From: a virus
Reading direction: 5' to 3' (one strand)
Virus record (IMG/VR): IMGVR_UViG_3300004804_000012
Span: 1 to 42,294 of that record
DNA length: 42,294 nucleotides
Positions 751-39,690 of this stretch are shown one piece after another (within the stretch, counting starts at the first letter, position 1; each line of letters opens with the position of its first letter). Below the pieces are notes generated by a model. It did not search any database and was not told the DNA's origin. It saw only the letters and a list, made by a program, of their open reading frames with translations. The position numbers were made by a program, and so were the translations under genes.

Positions 751-823
751 GGGGACATAGCTCAATTGGCAGAGCAACGCGTTTGCAACGCGTAGGCTGA
801 GGGTTCGAGTCCTTCTGTCTCCA
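751..823 (+). tRNA. tRNA-Ala (anticodon TGC)
   Basis: Complete cloverleaf. Acceptor GGGGACA pairs with TGTCTCC and discriminator A, including a G3:U70 wobble, the classical alanine identity element. The anticodon stem ACGCG/CGCGT encloses loop TTTGCAA with anticodon TGC. The T-arm is GAGGG TTCGAGT CCTTC. CCA is not encoded. Confidence 0.95.
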
Positions 824-826
824 TTT

Positions 827-899
827 GCCAGCGTAGCTCAATTGGCAGAGCAGCTGATTTGTAATCAGCAGGTTGCGGGTTCGACTCCCGCCGCTGGCT
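827..899 (+). tRNA. tRNA-Thr (anticodon TGT)
   Basis: Acceptor GCCAGCG pairs with CGCTGGC, discriminator T. The anticodon stem GCTGA/TCAGC encloses loop TTTGTAA, anticodon TGT. T-arm GCGGG TTCGACT CCCGC. Only 3 nt separate it from tRNA-Ala, so both are probably cut from one transcript. Confidence 0.95.
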
Positions 900-921
900 T
901 CTCCGTTCGAGTGTTGGTATT

Positions 922-1095
922 CCGGACGGTCTAAAGGTGCGCTGGAAACGAAGCGGCTGCTGTGGCTCTGCACGCTGTTGAATCCGGCGGGAAGTAGCTA
1001 CTCCCAACCACGTGTACTGTCTGGCGACATCCACGCATATTCAGTCGTGGCCTGCAGATAAGTGCTGACGTCCAGCGCACCTTTAAGCCGTCCGG
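922..1095 (+). ncRNA. Long-range stem-loop RNA of unknown role
   Basis: The left arm at 922-945 and the right arm at 1072-1095 are complementary over 24 nt with two adjacent mismatched positions. They enclose about 126 nt with smaller hairpins (CCACG/CGTGG at 1031-1050; GGGA/TCCC near 984). There is no convincing ORF inside. The right arm shares CCGTCC (1088-1093) with the left strand of the intrinsic terminator that follows, so the two structures exclude each other, as in an attenuator. It directly follows tRNA-Thr. It could be a stable phage ncRNA or a read-through control element; no known RNA family was recognised. Confidence 0.5.
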
Positions 1096-1119
1096 GTACC
1101 AATGCCCGGGCGGTTTTTT
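1088..1119 (+). terminator. Intrinsic terminator after the tRNA pair
   Basis: Stem CCGTCCGGG / CCCGGGCGG (one G-U pair) with an 8-nt loop, followed by six Ts (1114-1119). Its left strand overlaps the right arm of the upstream long-range stem. Confidence 0.85.
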
Positions 1120-1149
1120 GTTTAACTACCTAAGCACGAGGAGTTACCA

Positions 1150-1359
1150 GTGCCGCGGTTTAATCATGGGTTTTCTTTCCCGTTTGAGATCGTGAGCCGC
1201 GATAAATTTGGCCACGATATTACAAGCGCGCAACTTCGAGAAGCCATCATGGCGCGGCTGGACAGCCTTTCAGACGACGAGCTAGCCGATGCGTGCGACG
1301 AGCCGCTCGACACCTACGAAGAAGCTGGGGGCCCTGATGCTGTCGCAGTTCCTGACTGA
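1150..1359 (+). CDS. Hypothetical acidic protein, 69 aa
   Basis: Starts at GTG 1150 with GAGGAG (1138-1143) as ribosome-binding site. The protein is short and acidic in its second half (SLSDDELADACDEPLDTYEE), with no signal peptide, membrane segment or metal-binding motif. The next small membrane-protein gene starts inside its 3' end in another frame, suggesting translational coupling. Family not recognised. Confidence 0.6.
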   Translation: MPRFNHGFSFPFEIVSRDKFGHDITSAQLREAIMARLDSLSDDELADACDEPLDTYEEAGGPDAVAVPD

Positions 1360-1516
1360 GTTCCTTGTCGGGTTGTTTGGAGTCGCCGCCTACAACGTGT
1401 TCTTCAACCCAAACTTTAAAGATGAGCTTGCGGCCCCGACACAATGGCGGCATCGTATTCGCGACCTATTGGTCGTATTGATATCAATTCAGTTCTACAA
1501 ACTGCTCATTCGGTAG
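1337..1516 (+). CDS. Small membrane protein, 59 aa
   Basis: ATG at 1337 opens a frame beginning MLSQFLTEFLVGLFGVAAYN, a hydrophobic N-terminal segment, and ending with a second hydrophobic stretch (DLLVVLISIQFYKLLIR). It overlaps the preceding gene by 23 nt. The site before ATG is weak (GGGGGCC), so translation may depend on coupling. A perfect ATTGATATCAAT palindrome (1477-1488) lies in the coding sequence and uses an ATA-free Leu-Ile-Ser-Ile context. Probably a two-pass inner-membrane miniprotein of unknown role. Confidence 0.55.
   Translation: MLSQFLTEFLVGLFGVAAYNVFFNPNFKDELAAPTQWRHRIRDLLVVLISIQFYKLLIR
1477..1488. repeat. GATATC palindrome copy 1
   Basis: Perfect 12-bp palindrome ATTGATATCAAT inside the small membrane-protein gene. 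It is the leftmost of 16 copies of an A/T-flanked GATATC motif spread over the window. Confidence 0.7.
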
Positions 1517-1520
1517 CGGC

Positions 1521-1604
1521 GGCCGAGTGGCGAAATAGGTAGACGCACGGGACTTAAAATCCTGTGGTAGCAATACCGTGCGGGTTCGAGTCCCGCCTCG
1601 GTCA
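1521..1604 (+). tRNA. tRNA-Leu (anticodon TAA)
   Basis: Class II tRNA of 84 nt with an extended variable arm. Acceptor GGCCGAG pairs with CTCGGTC (one G-U), discriminator A. Anticodon loop CTTAAAA gives TAA, reading TTA, a codon likely to be rare in a G+C-rich host. T-arm GCGGG TTCGAGT CCCGC. No encoded CCA. Confidence 0.93.
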
Positions 1605-18717: not shown

Positions 18718-18791
18718 CGGGGTGTGGAGCAGTCCGGTAGCTCGACGGGCTCATAACCCGTAGGTCGTGGGTTCGAATCCCACCGCCCCCA
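18718..18791 (+). tRNA. Initiator tRNA-fMet (anticodon CAT)
   Basis: The anticodon stem ACGGG/CCCGT has the three consecutive G-C pairs of initiator tRNAs around loop CTCATAA. The D-arm GAGC AGTCCGGTA GCTC keeps the A11-U24 pair. Acceptor CGGGGTG against CGCCCCC leaves a C1-C72 mismatch, equivalent to the unpaired 1-72 position of bacterial initiators. T-arm GTGGG TTCGAAT CCCAC, discriminator A, no CCA encoded. Confidence 0.9.
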
Positions 18792-18794
18792 CTA

Positions 18795-18850
18795 CGCCGC
18801 TCACGGCTTTAGGACTGAGCATGCTCGGTTGGCCGTGAGCGGCGTTTTTT
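18795..18850 (+). terminator. Strong intrinsic terminator between two tRNAs
   Basis: A perfect 13-bp stem, CGCCGCTCACGGC (18795-18807) with GCCGTGAGCGGCG (18832-18844), a 24-nt loop and six Ts. It sits between tRNA-fMet and tRNA-Ser, so tRNA-Ser either needs its own promoter or depends on read-through. Confidence 0.9.
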
Positions 18851-18853
18851 CTT

Positions 18854-18941
18854 GGAAGGTTGGCAGAGTGGGTTAATGCACCTGTTTTGAAAACAGACGA
18901 AGGGAAATACCCTTCCGGGGGTTCGAATCCCTCACCTTCCG
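18854..18941 (+). tRNA. tRNA-Ser (anticodon TGA)
   Basis: Class II tRNA, 88 nt. Acceptor GGAAGGT/ACCTTCC with discriminator G (typical for Ser). Anticodon loop TTTGAAA gives TGA. Long variable arm (GAAGGGAAATACCCTTC region) and T-arm GGGGG TTCGAAT CCCTC. Confidence 0.93.
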
Positions 18942-18958
18942 CTTTCTTGGAGTGCAAC

Positions 18959-21281: not shown

Positions 21282-21722
21282 ATGACCGCACCAACCGCCC
21301 GTTTCATTCTCAACGTCGAGCAGCGCGTCTACGTGGAAAAGCCTTGGGGCCACGAAGACTGGATCTACAACGGCCGATACTGCGGCAAGAAACTGCACGT
21401 TAACAAGGGCAAAGAGAGCAGTTTCCAGTACTACAAGGTCAAGGACGCGGTGATGCACGTGGAGTCTGGTAAAATCCAGCTGACGTACGGCTGGGACGAG
21501 GATATCTCCCACGCGGCAACGATCACGCTCACGCCCGACATGGCTTTCCACATTCCGCCTGGCATGTGGCACAAGTTTGCTGGCATCGAGCAGTCTGTCA
21601 TCACCGAGTTCAGCACGCACCACAACGACAAAGACGCCGTGTGCGCTGGACAGCAGAATGGCACGGAGAATGACGATGAAGAAGACGGCACGGAAGCAGC
21701 TTCGGATTCACGGAAGTCCTGA
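21282..21722 (+). CDS. Cupin of the mannose-6-phosphate isomerase type, 146 aa
   Basis: VEKPWGHEDWIYNGRYCGKK at the N-terminus is the KPWGxE signature of type II phosphomannose isomerase cupins. It is followed by cupin motif 1 (KGKESSFQYYKVKDAVMHVE) and motif 2 (LTPDMAFHIPPGMWHKF). The usual first His pair is partly replaced (SSFQYYK), so metal binding or catalysis is uncertain. The last 20 or so residues are an acidic tail created by overlap with the next gene. A sugar-nucleotide or polysaccharide role would fit the glycan cassette at 27-37 kb, but it is not adjacent to it. Confidence 0.75.
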   Translation: MTAPTARFILNVEQRVYVEKPWGHEDWIYNGRYCGKKLHVNKGKESSFQYYKVKDAVMHVESGKIQLTYGWDEDISHAATITLTPDMAFHIPPGMWHKFAGIEQSVITEFSTHHNDKDAVCAGQQNGTENDDEEDGTEAASDSRKS

Positions 21723-23775
21723 GCGCGCGTTTGGCGCGCAGCTGGCGTTTGCACTGCACAAGCGCGCCTTCTCGAACGACGAGAAGAGCTTCTCGCCAGC
21801 AGGTTCGGCCAAACCCGCCGTGTCGCCCAGTTCAGCGACCGGCGGGCAACCGCAGCCGCCAAAGCCTCCGGCGCCCATCAAGGCGCCCGCGCTTCCTGCG
21901 CAGCCCAAGCCGCCCGGGCCGTCGCTCTGGGGCGATATGACGGCCAACGGCAAGCGCGTTGGTCTTGGCGTGCTGGGCTCTGTGTCCGGCCTTGGCGCAA
22001 CGGGCGGGCTGGGTTTGATGAGCGGGGCAAACAAAGCCTGGAACGCCGTCACGCCGAAACCGTTGAATACGTCGCAAGGCTGGACGCAGGGCCTCAACCA
22101 GGTTTATGACCAGACGGCCAACTTTGCCGAGAACTCGATCAAAGACGTCGTGGGCGGCCTGACTGGTGACACGGACTACCACACCAGCCGCATGCAGAAC
22201 TCGCTTGAACAAGGCTGGAACGACCCGAGCGTAGATCCCACGAGCCGCGCGATTGCGCAGACCGCTGCGGGCGTGGGCGAGAACGCGTGGACGGGCGCCA
22301 CGTCGTTGTACGGCGGTAACGCCGTATTGAACGCCGCGAGCCGGTTGCCTGGCGTCGCCGCTGGTGGGCAGCTGCTCGCTAAAACGCCCGGCTTTGATCC
22401 TGTGATGCGTGCGACGTCTTACATTACTGGCACGCCCATGGCGTCGAATTTGAATCAAGCTGGCATGCTGGCCAGCCAGATGGGCCAAGCCACGGTTGGT
22501 GCGGGCGCCACGGCGTATGACGGCCTGAATGCGGCGCACGGCATCGAGAGTAATTACGCCGGAATGGTGCCGATGTTTGCGGCGCAGCAGGGCCTGTCGA
22601 ACGTAATCGGCGAAGACGCCGCCAACGTCGTGAACAGCTACGCGGGCGGGCGGTTCATGCAGGGCATGACGCCAGGCCAGATTGCTGTACAGACAGGTCT
22701 TCCTGCGGCTGTTGAAGTTGGCACGCGGCTGCAAAGCCAACCGCAGCCGGAGCAGCCTGCGCCATCGGGCGATCCGTCCATCCTGGGCGATACAACGCCG
22801 CCAAGCGAACCAGTCGCGCCTCCGCCGCCAGAGCAAACCGCGGCGGTCCAGACCAGCATGGCAGCCGCAGCGCAGCCAGACGCGCCGCCAGAAGCCAAAC
22901 AGCAAGCGCAGTCGGACTTTCAATCGTTCATGCAGCAGCAAGCTGACAGCAATCCGCAATTCAAGAACGGCGCGGCGGATCTTGTGTCAGGCGACCCGGC
23001 CCGGCAGAACTCTCAAACCGCACAAGCGTTCCGGCAACACCTGCAAACAGTCGGCAACGACGTGCAAGACGCGGAACTGCAACGTTTGTACGCTGCCAAC
23101 CCGAATCCCACGCCGCAGCAAGCGGGCGGTTTTGCGGCACAAGCCCAAGACGCCTGGAACAACCTTGGTCCGCATGGCCAAATGATGGTGGGCTTGGGAG
23201 CGCCGCTTGCGTTGGCCGGTATGGCGATGTCGATGTTTGGAGACGAAGACGGCGGCATTCTGCCCATGCTGATGAGCATTCTCGGACTTGGCATGGCTGG
23301 CTTAGGCGCAGCTGGTAGTGGCGTGATGGGTGACGGCGCGCAGCAGATGGTCGGTGGCGGCATTCGCAACTTTGCCAACATGATGGGCGCGAAGATTCCC
23401 GAGGGCAACCAAGACCTGTCTGCGTTGCTCAAAGGCCCAGATGCCGCGGTGAGCAGCGCTGGTGGCGGATGGCGCGGCGCCTTAGATATCAAAGGCAAGT
23501 TGCAGAAAGCCGAGCAGCTCAAGCAGCTTACCAGCATGCCGAGCTACTTGGCCATACCGTTGATGCGCAATCTGGATCCCGAGCACATCAAGACGCCGCA
23601 GGACGCTCAAGCCGCCTATGCAAACGCGATGGCGCTGCGTCAACAGCTTGATAATCCCGAAAGTTCACTCGCAAAATCGCTTGCTACAGCGCAAACCATC
23701 GACCAGGGAATTAACAAAGCACAAGACGTTGCAACGGGCTGGTGGAATAAGGCAAAATCAACATTCGGAGGCTGA
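21676..23775 (+). CDS. Large Pro/Gln/Gly-rich probable virion protein, 699 aa
   Basis: ATG 21676 has GGAGA at a good distance; ATG 21670 and 21658 are alternatives. The gene overlaps the cupin gene by 47 nt. Regions: a basic N-terminus (MKKTARKQLRIHGSPERAF), a Pro-rich linker (about 45-80), a long Gly/Ala/Asn-rich body, a second Pro/Gln-rich linker (about 345-430), a hydrophobic Gly/Met block near 500-560 (MVGLGAPLALAGMAMSMFG; MSILGLGMAGLGAAGSG) and a soluble helical C-terminus. Overall design resembles the proteins at 7236, 9375 and 39953. Likely an internal virion or injected protein; function unknown. Confidence 0.6.
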   Translation: MKKTARKQLRIHGSPERAFGAQLAFALHKRAFSNDEKSFSPAGSAKPAVSPSSATGGQPQPPKPPAPIKAPALPAQPKPPGPSLWGDMTANGKRVGLGVLGSVSGLGATGGLGLMSGANKAWNAVTPKPLNTSQGWTQGLNQVYDQTANFAENSIKDVVGGLTGDTDYHTSRMQNSLEQGWNDPSVDPTSRAIAQTAAGVGENAWTGATSLYGGNAVLNAASRLPGVAAGGQLLAKTPGFDPVMRATSYITGTPMASNLNQAGMLASQMGQATVGAGATAYDGLNAAHGIESNYAGMVPMFAAQQGLSNVIGEDAANVVNSYAGGRFMQGMTPGQIAVQTGLPAAVEVGTRLQSQPQPEQPAPSGDPSILGDTTPPSEPVAPPPPEQTAAVQTSMAAAAQPDAPPEAKQQAQSDFQSFMQQQADSNPQFKNGAADLVSGDPARQNSQTAQAFRQHLQTVGNDVQDAELQRLYAANPNPTPQQAGGFAAQAQDAWNNLGPHGQMMVGLGAPLALAGMAMSMFGDEDGGILPMLMSILGLGMAGLGAAGSGVMGDGAQQMVGGGIRNFANMMGAKIPEGNQDLSALLKGPDAAVSSAGGGWRGALDIKGKLQKAEQLKQLTSMPSYLAIPLMRNLDPEHIKTPQDAQAAYANAMALRQQLDNPESSLAKSLATAQTIDQGINKAQDVATGWWNKAKSTFGG

Positions 23776-23805
23776 TGCTCGTTAAGCCGTCGCAAGGAGG
23801 TGACG

Positions 23806-24336
23806 ATGTACGAAGTTGCCTATGTCGCGCTGGCCTGGCTGGCGTCGGACCTTGTGACGGGATTTGTGCACTGGGTAGAAGACCGATACGGAAATCCCGC
23901 GTGGCCGATCGTTGGCAAGCACGTCATTGCGCCAAACATCCGGCATCATGCAGACCCGCGGGCGTTTCTTGTCGGCGGTTTCTTTGAGCGGAACTGGACG
24001 ACATTGGTGCCAGCACTGACGATTGCTGCTGGATTTGCCTGTGTTGGCTGGTACTGGTTCGCTCTGGTGGCGGGGTTTTCGGCGTTTGCGAACGAAGTGC
24101 ACGCGTGGAGTCACCAGAAGTGCAGCCGCGGTATCCGTGGTTTGCAGCTGCTGGGGCTGCTGTGTTCTCAGGAAGACCACGCGCGGCACCATGAACGCCC
24201 GTTTGACTGCTATTACTGCGTCATGACGGGCTATCTGAATCCAGTTCTGTCCTTCATTCGGTTTTGGCCTGGCCTGGAGATGTTGCTCGGCTATCCGACT
24301 GGCATCTGGCCGCGCAAAGAAAGAGAGCACGCATGA
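23806..24336 (+). CDS. CarF/TMEM189-type membrane lipid desaturase, 176 aa
   Basis: Matches the pattern of the lipid-desaturase family that includes plasmanylethanolamine desaturase (CarF, TMEM189/PEDS1) and plant FAD4. Histidine motifs are in order: H22-W-x-E-D26, N44-x-x-H47-H48, N96-E-x-H99-x-W-S-H103, and H125-x-x-H128-H129, followed by YYCVMTGYLN. These eight histidines are the diiron ligands expected for O2-dependent desaturation. Hydrophobic segments (3-20, 66-95, 113-120, 144-165) make it an integral membrane enzyme. Slightly short for the family. ATG 23806 has a perfect AAGGAGG. The likely substrate is an ether or acyl chain of host or virion phospholipid; which one cannot be told from sequence. 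Confidence 0.88.
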   Translation: MYEVAYVALAWLASDLVTGFVHWVEDRYGNPAWPIVGKHVIAPNIRHHADPRAFLVGGFFERNWTTLVPALTIAAGFACVGWYWFALVAGFSAFANEVHAWSHQKCSRGIRGLQLLGLLCSQEDHARHHERPFDCYYCVMTGYLNPVLSFIRFWPGLEMLLGYPTGIWPRKEREHA

Positions 24337-24899
24337 GCACGAACTTTCGCGATATCTACACGCAGTGGGCGCAGAAGCAGGCAACGCTGGCCTTCGTTAT
24401 GAAATCCGCGCGCTGTTGGGCGGGCTACGAGCCGGTTCCGGGCAAAGCGCCCTACAGCGAAGACTCGTGCCGCCCCAAGGGCAGCAAGAAGAAGAAAGCG
24501 CCGAGCGAGAAGAAGAGCGCTGAAGGCTGCTGTGGTCCGGCGAGCGTGCCTGAACACACGTCGCAGGAGCCGACCAAGCAGATCACGCCCAAGCCTGCGG
24601 TGATCAGTCACAGCAAGCAGGTGCTGACCAGCGACCCGGCGCGTTTTGGCGCGTCGATCAAAGAAGCCATTGCGGGCGAGGGCAAAGGCGAGGAAAAGTA
24701 CGAGCCGAAAGGTCCGAAGGCCCGCCTTGGCCAAAGCGTGTTCACGCACGTCGAGAAGAAAGACAAGGAAGAGCTGGATGGCGTGAAGCCGTCCCACGAG
24801 ACATCGAAGCACATCAGCGTGACGCGCGAAGAGCCCGAGGAAGAAGAAGACCTGCGGGCTGAGGAGGTGTTTCCGGACACACGGGCCTATACAGACTGA
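24333..24899 (+). CDS. Hypothetical Lys/Glu-rich protein, 188 aa
   Basis: Starts at ATG 24333, overlapping the desaturase stop (ATGA). An N-terminal helical region is followed by CWAGYEPVPGKAPYSEDSCR, a compact Cys/aromatic/Pro motif of a kind I have seen in virus proteins, and then a Lys/Ser/Glu-rich, probably disordered remainder ending in an acidic tail (EEPEEEEDLRAEE). The translational coupling ties it to the desaturase. It may be a structural or packaging-linked protein; no function assigned. Confidence 0.65.
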   Translation: MSTNFRDIYTQWAQKQATLAFVMKSARCWAGYEPVPGKAPYSEDSCRPKGSKKKKAPSEKKSAEGCCGPASVPEHTSQEPTKQITPKPAVISHSKQVLTSDPARFGASIKEAIAGEGKGEEKYEPKGPKARLGQSVFTHVEKKDKEELDGVKPSHETSKHISVTREEPEEEEDLRAEEVFPDTRAYTD

Positions 24900-24951: not shown

Positions 24952-25665
24952 ATGCGAAAAACAACGCGTTCGGCAGGAAAGAAATCATCCGAAAAAGCTG
25001 CGCGCCGCCAAGTGCGCCAAGAAACGAAAGAACAGCAGGTTCGTCAGCCTTTAGAGATCGAGTGGCGCACGAAAGCGCAGGCGCAGGCCTGGGACTTGGT
25101 CGTAAACAACGACCTCACGTTTTTGCTCGGCAGCGCAGGTTCTGGCAAGACGTTTGTTGCCATGGCCTACGCGATCAACGCTGTTCTCACGGGCCAGGCT
25201 GAACATATCGTCCTGACGCGGCCAATTGTGGACGCTGGTGAGAAGATGGGTTACTTGCCGGGCGGCGTCAACGACAAGGTCGACCCGTACATGCGCCCGC
25301 TGTACGACGCCATGGACAAGCTGCTCGGCAAGTTTTCTCCCAAGCGCGAGATAGTCAACAAGGCGGTGATTCTTGCGCCGCTGTGTCACATGCGCGGTCG
25401 GACGTTCGACAACGCCGTGTGTGTGTTTGACGAAGCGCAGAACGCGACGTACACGCAGTTCAAGCTGTTTTTGACGCGGCTGGGCAACAACAGCCGGTAC
25501 ATCGTCACTGGCGACCCAGACCAGAACGACTTGCCGGTTTCTCCTGCGCCGATCCGCGAAGTCGTCCGGAAGCTTGAAAACAAACCGCGTATTGGCGCGT
25601 TCAAGTTCCGTGACAGTGACTGCGTGCGTCATCCGCTTGTGATGACAATTTTGACGCACCTCTGA
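24952..25665 (+). CDS. phoH: PhoH-family ATPase, 237 aa
   Basis: P-loop ATPase widespread in phages, proposed to act in RNA metabolism. Walker A GSAGSGKT (residues 60-67), then LTRPIVDAGEKMGYLPG, the family hallmark, Walker B-type CVFDEAQNAT (about 158-165) and TGDPDQNDLP (about 187-195) are all present. The N-terminal 30 residues are basic. Full length for the phage type. ATG 24952 is preceded by GGAAAGGA. No nuclease or KH domain is fused. Confidence 0.95.
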   Translation: MRKTTRSAGKKSSEKAARRQVRQETKEQQVRQPLEIEWRTKAQAQAWDLVVNNDLTFLLGSAGSGKTFVAMAYAINAVLTGQAEHIVLTRPIVDAGEKMGYLPGGVNDKVDPYMRPLYDAMDKLLGKFSPKREIVNKAVILAPLCHMRGRTFDNAVCVFDEAQNATYTQFKLFLTRLGNNSRYIVTGDPDQNDLPVSPAPIREVVRKLENKPRIGAFKFRDSDCVRHPLVMTILTHL

Positions 25666-27129: not shown

Positions 27130-27726
27130 ATGTCGCAGTATAATCTCGCGCATTTGACGCTCGGCAATGACTACGTGCAGGCCGCAATTCAAGACGATGA
27201 GGCGTTGCTGCTGTTTGCGGCGATAAAGTGCATGCGGTTGCGCACGGTCTTGGAGGTTGGCGCGTTGCACGGCTACTCCGCGCAGAACTTTCTAGCTGCC
27301 GTCGGCCCCAAGGGTAAAGTGATCAGCGTAGACATCAACGCAGTCACGCCGCTCGATGTGAATCACACAACGATTCAAAGCCCTATACAAGACGTCGACC
27401 CCGCGTTGTTGCCCGTGCTTGACCTTGTGTTCTTTGATGCGCATGTCTACGACGAACAGCTTGCTTTTTTTAAGCGGGCGCGAGAACAAGGCAAGATTAC
27501 GCCCAAAACGATCATCGCTCTTCACGACACGGGTCTTTTTCCTGGGCCTGTTGTTCCCGGCTGCAAACAAGTTACCGGCGGCTGGATGCACGAAGCAGTC
27601 GAACGCCGCATGGTGAACTATCTTGTAGAGGCTGGCTATCACGCGTTTTGTGCAAACGACGACGGAGGATCTCCGCCGCGGAAGGGCATTACGCTCATGC
27701 AGCAATTTGCTCGCTTTGAAACGTAA
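27130..27726 (+). CDS. Class I SAM-dependent methyltransferase-like protein, 198 aa
   Basis: The Rossmann signature is clear: TVLEVGALHGYSAQNFLAAVG (motif I, about residues 40-60), KVISVDIN (motif II), LDLVFFDAHVYDEQ (motif IV region) and TIIALHDTGLFPG (post-motif), as in caffeoyl-CoA O-methyltransferase-type or Methyltransf_24 proteins. ATG 27130, with GGAAAGC upstream. It opens the glycan cassette, so methylation of a sugar or of another envelope component is plausible (inference). Confidence 0.8.
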   Translation: MSQYNLAHLTLGNDYVQAAIQDDEALLLFAAIKCMRLRTVLEVGALHGYSAQNFLAAVGPKGKVISVDINAVTPLDVNHTTIQSPIQDVDPALLPVLDLVFFDAHVYDEQLAFFKRAREQGKITPKTIIALHDTGLFPGPVVPGCKQVTGGWMHEAVERRMVNYLVEAGYHAFCANDDGGSPPRKGITLMQQFARFET

Positions 27727-27852
27727 TTAGCGCGAGCTGACAAATTTGCTGCGACCTGTTTCGTGCACACAAAAAGTTTTGAAGCAGCCGTACAACCGCA
27801 AACGGCGGAACCGGTCCATGTGGAGTTGGCGACGAATGACAAAGGAGCTTTT

Positions 27853-28299
27853 GTGGCACACGTCTACACCTGCGGCACGTTCGACCTGTTTCATCCAGGG
27901 CACATTTCGTTTTTGAAGCGCTGCTCTCGGCTGGCGGGCGCTGGCGGCACGCTTACGGTTGGTTTGAACACCGACCAGTTCGTGTTTTGGTACAAAAAGC
28001 AGCGGCCGGTTATGCGGTTTGATGAGCGTTGGGAAATGCTCAAAGAATGCCAGTACGTCACCAAAGTCATTCGCAACGTGGCCGGTGCGGATCTTCGGCC
28101 GTCTATCGCGGCGTGCAGTCCGCGCATAGATACCATAGCGGTCGGCTCAGACTGGGCGTGCAAGGATTACTTCGCCCAGACTGGCCTGAGTGACACGTGG
28201 CTCGACGGCAACAACATCTTGCTGGTGTACCTGCCCTACACGCAAGGCATCTCGACCAGCACGTTGCGCGAGCGAATCCTGGCCGACGAAGCGGAGTAA
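27853..28299 (+). CDS. TagD/RfaE-type cytidylyltransferase, 148 aa
   Basis: Nucleotidyltransferase that couples CTP (or ATP) to a phosphorylated alcohol or sugar, as in glycerol-3-phosphate cytidylyltransferase. GTG 27853 is set by AAAGGAG at 27841-27847. The N-terminus VYTCGTFDLFHPGH carries the HxGH motif (H14-H17), and GISTSTLRER near the C-terminus is the second signature. KKQRPVMRFDERWEML matches the substrate-binding helix. The length is typical for TagD. The product would be an activated donor for the neighbouring transferases. Confidence 0.88.
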   Translation: MAHVYTCGTFDLFHPGHISFLKRCSRLAGAGGTLTVGLNTDQFVFWYKKQRPVMRFDERWEMLKECQYVTKVIRNVAGADLRPSIAACSPRIDTIAVGSDWACKDYFAQTGLSDTWLDGNNILLVYLPYTQGISTSTLRERILADEAE

Positions 28300-34002: not shown

Positions 34003-35097
34003 ATGGACGACGTTCTCATTGTGGGCAGCGGCATGTTCGGCGCTGTCTTTGCTCGGCAGTGCCTCGACGCTGGCAAGTCTGTGCGCGTGCTGGAGCGCCG
34101 CGATCACGTTGCCGGAAACTGCTACACCAAAAACGTCGACGGCATCGAGCAGCACGTCTACGGGCCGCACATCTTTCACACGAACAGCCCGAAGATCTGG
34201 GACTACGTGCAGCAGTTTGGTCGGTTCAACAGCTTCGTGAACAGGCCCAAGGTCAACTACCACAGCAAGCTGTATTCGTTCCCGATCAATCTGTTTACGC
34301 TCTACCAGCTGTGGAACGTCTCGACGCCGGAAGAAGCTCGCGAGGCCCTGGACAAAGTTCGCGTGCCGATCGCGGAGCCAAAAAACCTGGAAGAGTGGGC
34401 ACTGTCTCAGGTCGGTGAAGAGCTGTATCAGACGTTCATCTACGGCTACACCAAGAAGCAGTGGATGCGCGAGCCCCGTGAGCTGCCAGCGTCGATCATC
34501 AAGCGGCTGCCCATCCGGCTGAACTTCGACGACAACTACTTCACGGATCGGTACCAGGGCATTCCGGAAGCGGGCTACACCGCGCTGCTCGGCAACATGC
34601 TTGTCGGCGCGCGTATCGAGTTGGGCGTGGACTACCTTTTCGCGCGGGATTACTGGGACGCACAGGCTAAGACCGTCGTGTTTACCGGCTGCCTCGATGA
34701 ATTTTACGGCTATCGATACGGCCATCTCGACTACCGAACGCTGCGTTTTGAGACAGTGCGTGAAAACATCGTGGATTATCAGGGCAACGCGGTCATCAAC
34801 TACACCGGCCGTGAACCCTACACCCGCGTCGTTGAACACAAGCATTTCTCGGGCGCGCAGACGCCGCACACGCTTGTCACGCGGGAATATCCTGAAGTGT
34901 GGCAGCCCGGTAGCGTGCCGTACTACCCCGTTAATGATGACAAAAACAGCGCGCTTTATGCGCGGTATGCCGCCGTTGCCCGCCAAGAAACAAAATACAT
35001 TTTTGGTGGAAGACTGGCCGAGTTTAGATACTATGACATGCACCAGGTGATCGGCAGCGCGCTGGCGTCGGCGGCGCATTTTCTCGGAGCTGAATGA
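34003..35097 (+). CDS. glf: UDP-galactopyranose mutase, 364 aa
   Basis: Flavoenzyme converting UDP-galactopyranose to UDP-galactofuranose. The FAD-binding motif GSGMFGA (8-14), RRDHVAGNCYT (about 32-42), YGPHIFHTN, the central GYTKKQWMREP and the C-terminal GGRLAEFRYYDMHQVIGSAL are all typical of bacterial GLF. Length is right (360-390 aa). ATG 34003. The stop overlaps the next start (ATGATG). Galactofuranose occurs in O-antigens and capsules of several bacteria; in this phage it implies synthesis or modification of a Galf-containing glycan. Confidence 0.97.
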   Translation: MDDVLIVGSGMFGAVFARQCLDAGKSVRVLERRDHVAGNCYTKNVDGIEQHVYGPHIFHTNSPKIWDYVQQFGRFNSFVNRPKVNYHSKLYSFPINLFTLYQLWNVSTPEEAREALDKVRVPIAEPKNLEEWALSQVGEELYQTFIYGYTKKQWMREPRELPASIIKRLPIRLNFDDNYFTDRYQGIPEAGYTALLGNMLVGARIELGVDYLFARDYWDAQAKTVVFTGCLDEFYGYRYGHLDYRTLRFETVRENIVDYQGNAVINYTGREPYTRVVEHKHFSGAQTPHTLVTREYPEVWQPGSVPYYPVNDDKNSALYARYAAVARQETKYIFGGRLAEFRYYDMHQVIGSALASAAHFLGAE

Positions 35098-36561: not shown

Positions 36562-37191
36562 ATGCCAATCGACTTTCAACACGTTCCGGCGTTTTGCATC
36601 AATCTCGTCGCGCGGCCAACCCGCTGGGCTCAAACGGAAGCTGAGTTTCAACGGGTACAGTGGCCGATCACGCGCTGGCCTGCCGTCTGGTACGCAAACT
36701 CTCCATCCGCAAACGTTGTCAAAGAGCAGGCAGGCGCGCTTGATAGTCATCGGCAGCTGTGGCAGAAGTGTCTAGACGACAAGCTTGACGTGATGGCGGT
36801 GTTCGAAGACGACGTTGTTTTGCCGTCGAACTTCATTGATATCTTTGCGCGCGTATCGGCTGAGTTACCGGCAGATTGGTCGTTATGGCACCTGCACTCA
36901 TCGCGCGCCAAAACTGCTCCGGCGGGTCAGTATCTTGTGCGCATTCTTTCGTCAATGTGGGGCACGCACGGTTACCTAATCCGGCCCGCAGCCTGCGCCG
37001 AGTTGTTGGCTGTTCCTGGTTACGCCGCCGCTGATTACCGCATGACAAAAACCTACCTAGATGCGGGCGGGCAGCCGCTGGGGACAGCAATGCACTCCGG
37101 CCTGTGTTTTCAGCGCGGCGACGACAGCGACATCCCGACGACGGCGCAGTTGCGCTTTTGGCGAGAACAGCGGCAAAAATACTGCCGTTAA
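36562..37191 (+). CDS. Glycosyltransferase family 25 (LPS-type), 209 aa
   Basis: GT25 signatures: FCINLVARPTRW (about residues 10-21), LDVMAVFEDDVVLP with EDD at 82-84 (acidic metal site) and SMWGTHGYLIRPAACAEL, the sugar-acceptor segment. A bit short but complete. ATG 36562 starts just after the preceding stop. An ATTGATATCTTTGCGCGC sequence (36835-36852) encodes IDIFAR and repeats the extended palindrome at 26416. Last gene of the cassette. Confidence 0.85.
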   Translation: MPIDFQHVPAFCINLVARPTRWAQTEAEFQRVQWPITRWPAVWYANSPSANVVKEQAGALDSHRQLWQKCLDDKLDVMAVFEDDVVLPSNFIDIFARVSAELPADWSLWHLHSSRAKTAPAGQYLVRILSSMWGTHGYLIRPAACAELLAVPGYAAADYRMTKTYLDAGGQPLGTAMHSGLCFQRGDDSDIPTTAQLRFWREQRQKYCR

Positions 37192-38571: not shown

Positions 38572-39690
38572 ATGGATGGCTTCTCCATTCTTGATCCGGC
38601 AAACTGGCGCGCGGGCGGGCTGAAAGAGCACCCTGCGTACATTGTCGGCAACGCGGCAGCCTGGCTCACCAAAGCTGGCGCTGTCGGAACAAATCACTAT
38701 CTCACCGGGCGGCTTTACATCTCGAAGAGCGGCTGGTTGCTGCTTTCGGTGCCTAATGCGCTTGTGCGCGGCGTTTTCGACGCCATGACGGCCACCGGCG
38801 CCGAGTTGCCCACGTTGAGTGCGTTTATGGGCAAATCTGCCGACAAAGACTTGCTCAACGCGCATATTTCCGTGATGACCGCGGAAGAAGTCGACCAAAT
38901 TGGCGCTGACAAGATCAACGAGCGCGGGCACCACTTTCACTACGCGCTAGGCCAGATCCGCGAGTTTTCGCCTGAGAAAGCGAACACGTTGAGCCGCGTC
39001 TGGGCGATTCAGGTGGCGAGTCCCGAGCTAGCAGCCTTGCGAAAGAGCTACGGGCTATCGGCGCTGCCCAACGACGATCACCCGTTTCACATCACCGTAG
39101 CCGTCAGGCGCAAGAACGTGCTGGGCGCTAATGAAGTCGCCAAGGTAGACGGCAGTCGCGGTGAGTCGAAGGCTGCCGAGGCAAAAGACGCCTTGCATGG
39201 CGGCGCGGCAGATCACAAGCCCGATAGCGCGTTCAACCAGGAGGCCTTGGCAGAAGGCAAAAAGCATGAGCACGAACACACCGACAACGATCAAATCGCC
39301 AAGGAAATTGCCAAGGATCACCTGTCCGAAGACCCCGCCTATTACGAAAAAGTCCAACAAATAGAGAAGGAAAGCAGCGTCTACCTCAATCAGACGCGGC
39401 AGATGTTCAACCCGTTTACGGTGTCTGGGCCGCAGATTCCGTATGACCACAATAAGCCCGTGTTTGAAAACATTCAGAACCAGATGGCGGAAGTGAAGCG
39501 CCGCGGAGATTTCATGCTCCAGGCGGACCGAAATCACCAGATCTGGCGTGCCCAGCTGGATCCGCACTACCGTCATCAACTTGCTCTTCAAGCGTTTCGA
39601 GGTGAACTGCCCCAGCCCGGTCTCACGGACCAGCTGTTTGAACGATATGGCGACGGAATGCTCGCCTCGTTACAGCCGAGGAGGCCGTGA
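38572..39690 (+). CDS. 2H-phosphoesterase-like domain plus C-terminal DUF5661-like region, 372 aa
   Basis: The N-terminal half contains the two short His motifs of the 2H (LigT-like) phosphoesterases: LNAHISVMTAEE (H98-x-S100) and HPFHITVAVRRK (H173-x-T175), 75 residues apart as expected. 2H enzymes hydrolyse 2'-5' or cyclic nucleotide bonds; the phage T4 anti-CBASS protein Acb1 is one example. After a His/Glu/Asp-rich linker (about 220-240), DNDQIAKEIAKDHLSEDPAY followed by YEKVQQIEKE resembles the DUF5661 pattern of phage proteins. ATG 38572 follows the PAS gene. Function is not proven; the first motif has Ser instead of Thr. Confidence 0.6.
   Translation: MDGFSILDPANWRAGGLKEHPAYIVGNAAAWLTKAGAVGTNHYLTGRLYISKSGWLLLSVPNALVRGVFDAMTATGAELPTLSAFMGKSADKDLLNAHISVMTAEEVDQIGADKINERGHHFHYALGQIREFSPEKANTLSRVWAIQVASPELAALRKSYGLSALPNDDHPFHITVAVRRKNVLGANEVAKVDGSRGESKAAEAKDALHGGAADHKPDSAFNQEALAEGKKHEHEHTDNDQIAKEIAKDHLSEDPAYYEKVQQIEKESSVYLNQTRQMFNPFTVSGPQIPYDHNKPVFENIQNQMAEVKRRGDFMLQADRNHQIWRAQLDPHYRHQLALQAFRGELPQPGLTDQLFERYGDGMLASLQPRRP

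What the first reader, a model, noticed from the sequence alone, without database searches (positions are those of the whole stretch)
23806..24336. Phage-encoded CarF/TMEM189-type lipid desaturase
All histidine motifs of the plasmanylethanolamine desaturase/FAD4 family are present in a complete ORF with a perfect ribosome-binding site, surrounded by phage genes. These enzymes make the vinyl-ether bond of plasmalogens (CarF, PEDS1) or desaturate phosphatidylglycerol acyl chains (FAD4). I am not aware of a described phage version. It would be a virus tool for changing membrane lipid chemistry.
Basis: partly seen in the sequence, partly recalled or inferred. Interest (0 to 1): 0.87.

Follow-up and report, generated by a model that had tools for sequence, protein, structure and literature searches.

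The report
Phage-borne eight-histidine membrane lipid desaturase
A bacterial virus carries a complete, conserved membrane enzyme gene of the family that puts double bonds into membrane lipids; many uncharted phages carry it, but the residues point to an uncharacterised acyl-lipid branch rather than to the plasmalogen-making enzymes first suggested.

Summary
The 176-aa ORF at 23806-24336 matches Pfam PF10520 (Lipid_desat) at E=9e-42, with all eight family histidines and the catalytic aspartate at the published spacing. The window is an IMG/VR virus record; a 127-kb syntenic relative is a jumbo-type phage (phage RNA polymerase, tail sheath, baseplate). That relative lacks only this gene at the same spot, so it is a one-gene cargo cassette. 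118 IMG/VR stretches encode relatives; 34 viral lineages form a supported clade beside alphaproteobacterial homologues, under purifying selection. Portal or terminase genes share the contig in at least 13 records. One cultured phage, Erythrobacter phage vB_EliS-L02, has a relative annotated 'hypothetical'.

It belongs to a third, uncharacterised branch. Best reading: a compact di-iron desaturase that remodels host phospholipid chains during infection. A 595-kb phage (LR756511) separately acquired a version that keeps all PEDS1 diagnostic residues. Substrate untested.

The parts
23806..24336 (+). PF10520 lipid desaturase, 176 aa; His residues H22,H47,H48,H99,H103,H125,H128,H129 and D26
   Evidence: AlphaFold2 pLDDT 93.2, pTM 0.87
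23794..23801 (+). Shine-Dalgarno sequence AAGGAGGT, 4 bases before the ATG
   Evidence: sequence, script
21676..23775 (+). upstream neighbour, about 699 aa (start uncertain), unknown function; its 3' end marks the left edge of the insertion point
   Evidence: 45% aa orthologue in the 127-kb relative ends at L144:5613
24333..24899 (+). downstream neighbour, 188 aa, unknown function; its ATG overlaps the desaturase stop (ATGA); right edge of the insertion point
   Evidence: 42% aa orthologue in the relative starts at L144:5649
24952..25665 (+). PhoH-like ATPase
   Evidence: phrog_170 E=3.5e-60; a phoH also lies beside the desaturase in vB_EliS-L02

Best explanation
The gene encodes a compact membrane-embedded di-iron desaturase of family PF10520, carried as single-gene cargo by a large tailed phage. 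SHOWN by sequence: family membership, an intact eight-His plus Asp site, purifying selection, phage linkage, and a clean gene-absent site in a relative. INFERRED: the eight histidines bind two irons; the enzyme takes O2 and electrons from a host donor (identity unknown) and puts a double bond into an acyl chain of a host phospholipid; this changes membrane properties during infection to the phage's benefit. The branch is neither PEDS1 nor clearly FAD4 but an alphaproteobacterial/phage branch whose substrate is not known. Phosphatidylglycerol or another host phospholipid acyl chain is more likely than the sn-1 ether chain of plasmanyl lipids.
For: PF10520 E=9e-42. Eight His and Asp invariant in 68/68 relatives. 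118 viral stretches encode relatives. Viral clade of 34 lineages, support 99/95, next to alphaproteobacterial homologues (the alternative tree is). dN/dS 0.13 for the window against its 96% relative and median 0.167 over 72 viral pairs. AlphaFold2 model pLDDT 93.2; the top two PDB entries are Scs7p sphingolipid hydroxylase structures and human SCD is third (VIA Z 6.6, 6.0 and 3.9), all histidine-box membrane lipid enzymes. Portal on 10 and terminase on 6 IMG/VR contigs bearing relatives, 13 contigs together. Empty site in a 127-kb phage relative. Against PEDS1 chemistry: G57 at the H131 position, N44 at Phe118 (PMC8960569, PMC9131029).
Against: No activity data for any viral member, and none known to me for the alphaproteobacterial ones beyond failure to replace CarF. 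Fold matches to solved structures are weak (Foldseek E 0.4 at best; Z under 8 may be only a common arrangement). Phe118 is replaced in nearly the whole branch, and Phe118Ala left only 6% activity in mouse PEDS1, so the chemistry could differ (for example hydroxylation). Host unknown.
Confidence: 0.7

Rival explanations
1. It is a phage CarF/PEDS1: it makes the vinyl-ether bond of plasmalogens from plasmanyl lipids.
For: Same Pfam family; CarF model NF045946 matches at 1.1e-28; eight His and Asp conserved.
Against: The ninth His essential in CarF and human TMEM189 is G57; Phe118 is N44; TM1 is absent; 100 bits against a cut-off of 500; nearest cellular relatives are of the alphaproteobacterial type that failed to complement carF. 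Plasmalogens are absent from most aerobic bacteria (PMC8156234).
Confidence: 0.07
2. It is a phage FAD4-like enzyme that puts a trans double bond at carbon 3 of the sn-2 chain of phosphatidylglycerol (a special case of the best explanation).
For: Shares the eight His without the ninth, as FAD4 does; published trees group alphaproteobacterial homologues with plants (PMC8156234, PMC9131029).
Against: Phe118 is conserved in FAD4 and PEDS1 alike but is Asn in this branch (PMC8960569); no FAD4 sequence could be put into the tree here; no peroxiredoxin partner recognised beside it.
Confidence: 0.25
3. It is a histidine-box enzyme of the same fold that hydroxylates rather than desaturates lipids.
For: Weak Pfam FA_hydroxylase match E=8e-4, below cut-off; best solved-structure match is the Scs7p hydroxylase; Phe118 replaced.
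Against: PF10520 scores over 120 bits higher; all characterised PF10520 members known to me are desaturases.
Confidence: 0.12
4. It is a host gene in a mis-assembled or mis-classified contig, without viral function.
For: The window has no detected terminase or portal.
Against: A near relative contig (G005) carries the gene in the same place and a 127-kb phage shares the flanking genes; a cultured phage genome has a homologue between phoH and portal; 13 IMG/VR contigs carry it with structural genes; viral sequences form their own clade.
Confidence: 0.03

Closest known systems
CarF (Myxococcus xanthus) / TMEM189-PEDS1 plasmanylethanolamine desaturase
   Same: PF10520 domain, eight essential His and Asp100 equivalent
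   Different: lacks the His131/His113 equivalent, the Phe118 equivalent and TM helix 1; scores far under the CarF equivalog cut-off
Plant FAD4 phosphatidylglycerol Delta3-trans desaturase
   Same: PF10520 domain, eight His without the ninth
   Different: Phe118, conserved in FAD4, is Asn; substrate untested
Alphaproteobacterial PF10520 homologues (Hyphomonadaceae and others)
   Same: closest cellular relatives; short N-terminus, Asn common at the Phe118 position, no ninth His
   Different: 39-44% identical to the window protein; the viral rows form a separate clade
Cyanophage and polar-virus fatty acid desaturases (Roitman 2018; PMC7300359)
   Same: virus-encoded membrane lipid desaturases proposed to alter host membrane fluidity
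   Different: PMC7300359 describes stearoyl-CoA-type Delta9/Delta6 desaturases with three His motifs; that these are of another Pfam family (PF00487) is from my own knowledge
Erythrobacter phage vB_EliS-L02 hypothetical protein UIS25202.1
   Same: 39% identical over 91% of the protein, all eight His, next to phoH and portal
   Different: long branch, placement with the viral clade not certain; annotated as hypothetical
Harvfovirus 'lipid desaturase domain-containing protein' (A0A3G5A308)
   Same: best match by fold among viral predicted structures (E 2e-5, TM 0.65)
   Different: giant virus of eukaryotes; 24% identity

Membership tests
PF10520 Lipid_desat | score above curated cut-off over the full domain | tested here: met
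   143.5 bits against 26.4, model 2-174 of 175
PF10520 Lipid_desat | eight essential histidines and catalytic aspartate | tested here: met
   H22,H47,H48,H99,H103,H125,H128,H129,D26; invariant in 68/68
PF10520 Lipid_desat | di-iron centre in a membrane helical fold | tested here: inconclusive
   confident all-helical model, weak matches to Scs7p and SCD; metal geometry not measurable
CarF/PEDS1 | ninth histidine (mouse H131, CarF H113) | tested here: not met
   G57 in the window; His in only 1 of 36 viral rows, the huge phage LR756511
CarF/PEDS1 | Phe118 equivalent | tested here: not met
   N44 in the window, Asn in 35 of 36 viral rows
CarF/PEDS1 | NF045946 equivalog cut-off | tested here: not met
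   100.5 against 500 bits; note that an Actinomycetota relative with the ninth His also scores only 196
CarF/PEDS1 | four transmembrane helices with TM1 upstream of the first His box | tested here: not met
   in-frame stop 31 codons before H22; hydropathy finds no TM1, whereas Actinomycetota homologues have one
CarF/PEDS1 | plasmalogen formation | not testable with these tools
   needs a lipid assay
FAD4 | eight His, ninth His absent | tested here: met
FAD4 | Phe118 conserved (PMC8960569) | tested here: not met
   N44
FAD4 | trans-Delta3 desaturation of phosphatidylglycerol, helped by PRXQ | not testable with these tools
   needs a lipid assay
phage auxiliary metabolic gene | encoded in a phage genome, intact and under selection | tested here: met
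phage auxiliary metabolic gene | alters host metabolism during infection | not testable with these tools
   needs infection lipidomics

The most novel reading that the evidence does not exclude
Tailed phages have captured the plasmalogen-desaturase family at least twice: once as an uncharacterised third substrate branch spread over many phage lineages (window), and once as a PEDS1-like version with all nine histidines, Asp and Phe in a 595-kb phage. This would give phages a way to install new double bonds, possibly vinyl-ether bonds, in host membrane lipids.
Probability: 0.3. Interest if true: 0.8.

Novelty: new variant of a known kind. Interest (0 to 1): 0.62.

Why it matters
Virus lipid desaturases have so far been described for cyanophages and polar viruses, as acyl desaturases with three His motifs. 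This adds a separate desaturase family, widespread in phages but hidden under 'hypothetical protein', with one cultured host-phage pair (Erythrobacter litoralis and vB_EliS-L02) in which its effect on lipids can be tested directly. The branch also offers a compact form, lacking the first membrane helix, of a family for which no solved relative was found by sequence, and residue differences that bear on what sets vinyl-ether against acyl-chain specificity.

Tried and rejected
PHROGs has no family for the protein. phmmer against PDB found nothing. No plasmid homologue. A single-sequence scan of GTDB genomes found none; the alignment scan found six. The weak phrog_2 'terminase' hit in the window is the PhoH ATPase, so it is not counted. 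Terminase and portal models found nothing convincing in the window or in its 127-kb relative; the relative is recognised by RNA polymerase, tail sheath, baseplate and head proteins instead. Neighbours conserved around alphaproteobacterial homologues gave no obvious partner such as an electron carrier or peroxiredoxin, but they were judged by eye, not by a family search. Adjacency to phoH is shared by the window, its near relative and vB_EliS-L02 but not seen in the other viral lineages, so it was not used as functional evidence. A single origin for all phage copies including LR756511 was rejected (AU p 0.016 and 0.0026). No FAD4, CarF or animal PEDS1 sequence could be fetched, so their residues are taken from the papers and the tree lacks them. 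The tree also samples only alphaproteobacteria and Actinomycetota among cells.

Full report
OBSERVATION. Pfam-A gives PF10520 Lipid_desat at E=9e-42 over nearly the whole model. NCBIfam's CarF equivalog matches at 1.1e-28 but with 100 bits against a cut-off of 500. The window is a 42,294-base IMG/VR virus record.

CATALYTIC RESIDUES. Mouse PEDS1 needs H96, H121, H122, H187, H191, H215, H218, H219 and D100; F118 is next most important; H131 is needed in CarF and human TMEM189 and leaves 7% activity when mutated in mouse (PMC8960569; PMC9131029). The window has H22, D26, H47, H48, H99, H103, H125, H128, H129 with the same in-motif spacing and the same 25-residue step from the first His to the HH pair. 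In 68 aligned relatives these nine positions never vary. The H131 position is G57 and the F118 position is N44. Among 36 viral rows only the 595-kb phage LR756511 has Phe and His there; 0 of 27 alphaproteobacterial rows have that His; the Actinomycetota rows all have Phe and two of five have His (the assignment of the single viral Phe and His to LR756511 is read from its sequence EFQEHHIRPRAFLYH).

SIZE AND FOLD. An in-frame stop lies 31 codons before H22, and hydropathy shows no helix corresponding to TM1, which Actinomycetota homologues have. Alphaproteobacterial homologues share the short form. AlphaFold2 with 39 sequences gives pLDDT 93.2 and pTM 0.87. The best solved-structure matches are the Scs7p sphingolipid hydroxylase and human stearoyl-CoA desaturase, weak in score (Z 6.6 and 3.9; Foldseek E 0.4 at best) but of the expected enzyme class. 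Among viral predicted structures the top match is a giant-virus lipid desaturase domain protein.

PHAGE LINKAGE. The window carries helicase, thyX, phoH, dCMP deaminase and five tRNAs, with its recognised phage-type genes on one strand, but no terminase or portal that the models detect. The 127-kb contig G851 shares more than 20 genes with it and encodes RNA polymerase beta parts, tail sheath, baseplate wedge and head proteins, so the window is most likely a fragment of a jumbo-type tailed phage. In G851 the genes on either side of the desaturase are neighbours with 35 bases between them (L144 5613 to 5649), and PF10520 is absent from that record. In the window the desaturase stop overlaps the next start (ATGA). 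This is a one-gene insertion or loss.

SPREAD. An alignment scan of IMG/VR found 118 stretches that encode relatives. Portal genes lie on 10 and terminase genes on 6 of the contigs bearing them, 13 contigs together. GenBank phages hold only two, both without a functional name: vB_EliS-L02, between phoH and portal, and LR756511. The vB_EliS-L02 paper does not mention a desaturase. PF10520 is rare in the cells sampled here: 6 of 385 alphaproteobacterial genomes at E 0.001 or better, and 28 of 299 in the order of a Henriciella genome.

EVOLUTION. 34 viral lineages including the window form one clade (99/95) beside alphaproteobacterial homologues; vB_EliS-L02 joins it with 92/79 but is on a long branch and moves when other long rows are removed. 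LR756511 goes with the Actinomycetota CarF-like rows; forcing all phage copies together is rejected (p 0.016; p 0.0026). The gene is under purifying selection: dN 0.018, dS 0.139 against its nearest relative, and median dN/dS 0.167 over 72 pairs.

FUNCTION. The intact site and the selection make an active enzyme likely. Loss of the ninth His, of Phe118 and of TM1 argues against plasmalogen synthesis, and the alphaproteobacterial homologue tested by others did not replace CarF (PMC9131029). FAD4 also lacks the ninth His but keeps Phe118, so this is not filed as FAD4. The best reading is an acyl-lipid desaturase of a third branch, acting on host phospholipids during infection; substrate, electron donor and benefit are inferred.

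NOVELTY. Viral lipid desaturases are known (Roitman 2018, cited in PMC7300359; PMC7300359 itself). In the held papers no phage PF10520 enzyme was found; this covers open-licence PMC papers only. Hence: new variant of a known kind.

Noticed in passing
L005:6001-6459 (LR756511.1 54612-55070): A 595-kb uncultured phage encodes a 152-aa PF10520 protein that keeps the ninth His and the Phe of PEDS1; separate origin from the window's clade.
   Followed up: partly
L142-L147 (IMGVR_UViG_3300044613_004618): 127-kb relative of the window with phage-type RNA polymerase subunits and contractile tail genes but no terminase or portal found with the models tried: a divergent jumbo-type lineage.
   Followed up: partly
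window 34003-35097, 27763-28299, 36562-37191: UDP-galactopyranose-mutase-like (phrog_9677, E=5e-124), heptose adenyltransferase-like and glucosyltransferase-like genes: a possible surface-sugar module.
   Followed up: no
window 27130-28299 against L140:6281-8059: Order of the methyltransferase-like and heptose-adenyltransferase-like genes differs between the window and its near relative, suggesting a local rearrangement.
   Followed up: no
L068 and L070 (IMGVR_UViG_2936182689_000005 and _000004): Two contigs with portal and closely related desaturases carry the same IMG dataset number, possibly two viruses or proviruses from one sample or genome.
   Followed up: no
window 38572-39690: Protein with a 2H phosphoesterase domain (PF22547) joined to DUF5661.
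   Followed up: no
window 751-1604 and 18718-18942: Five tRNA genes (Ala, Thr, Leu, Met, Ser) in two clusters.
   Followed up: no
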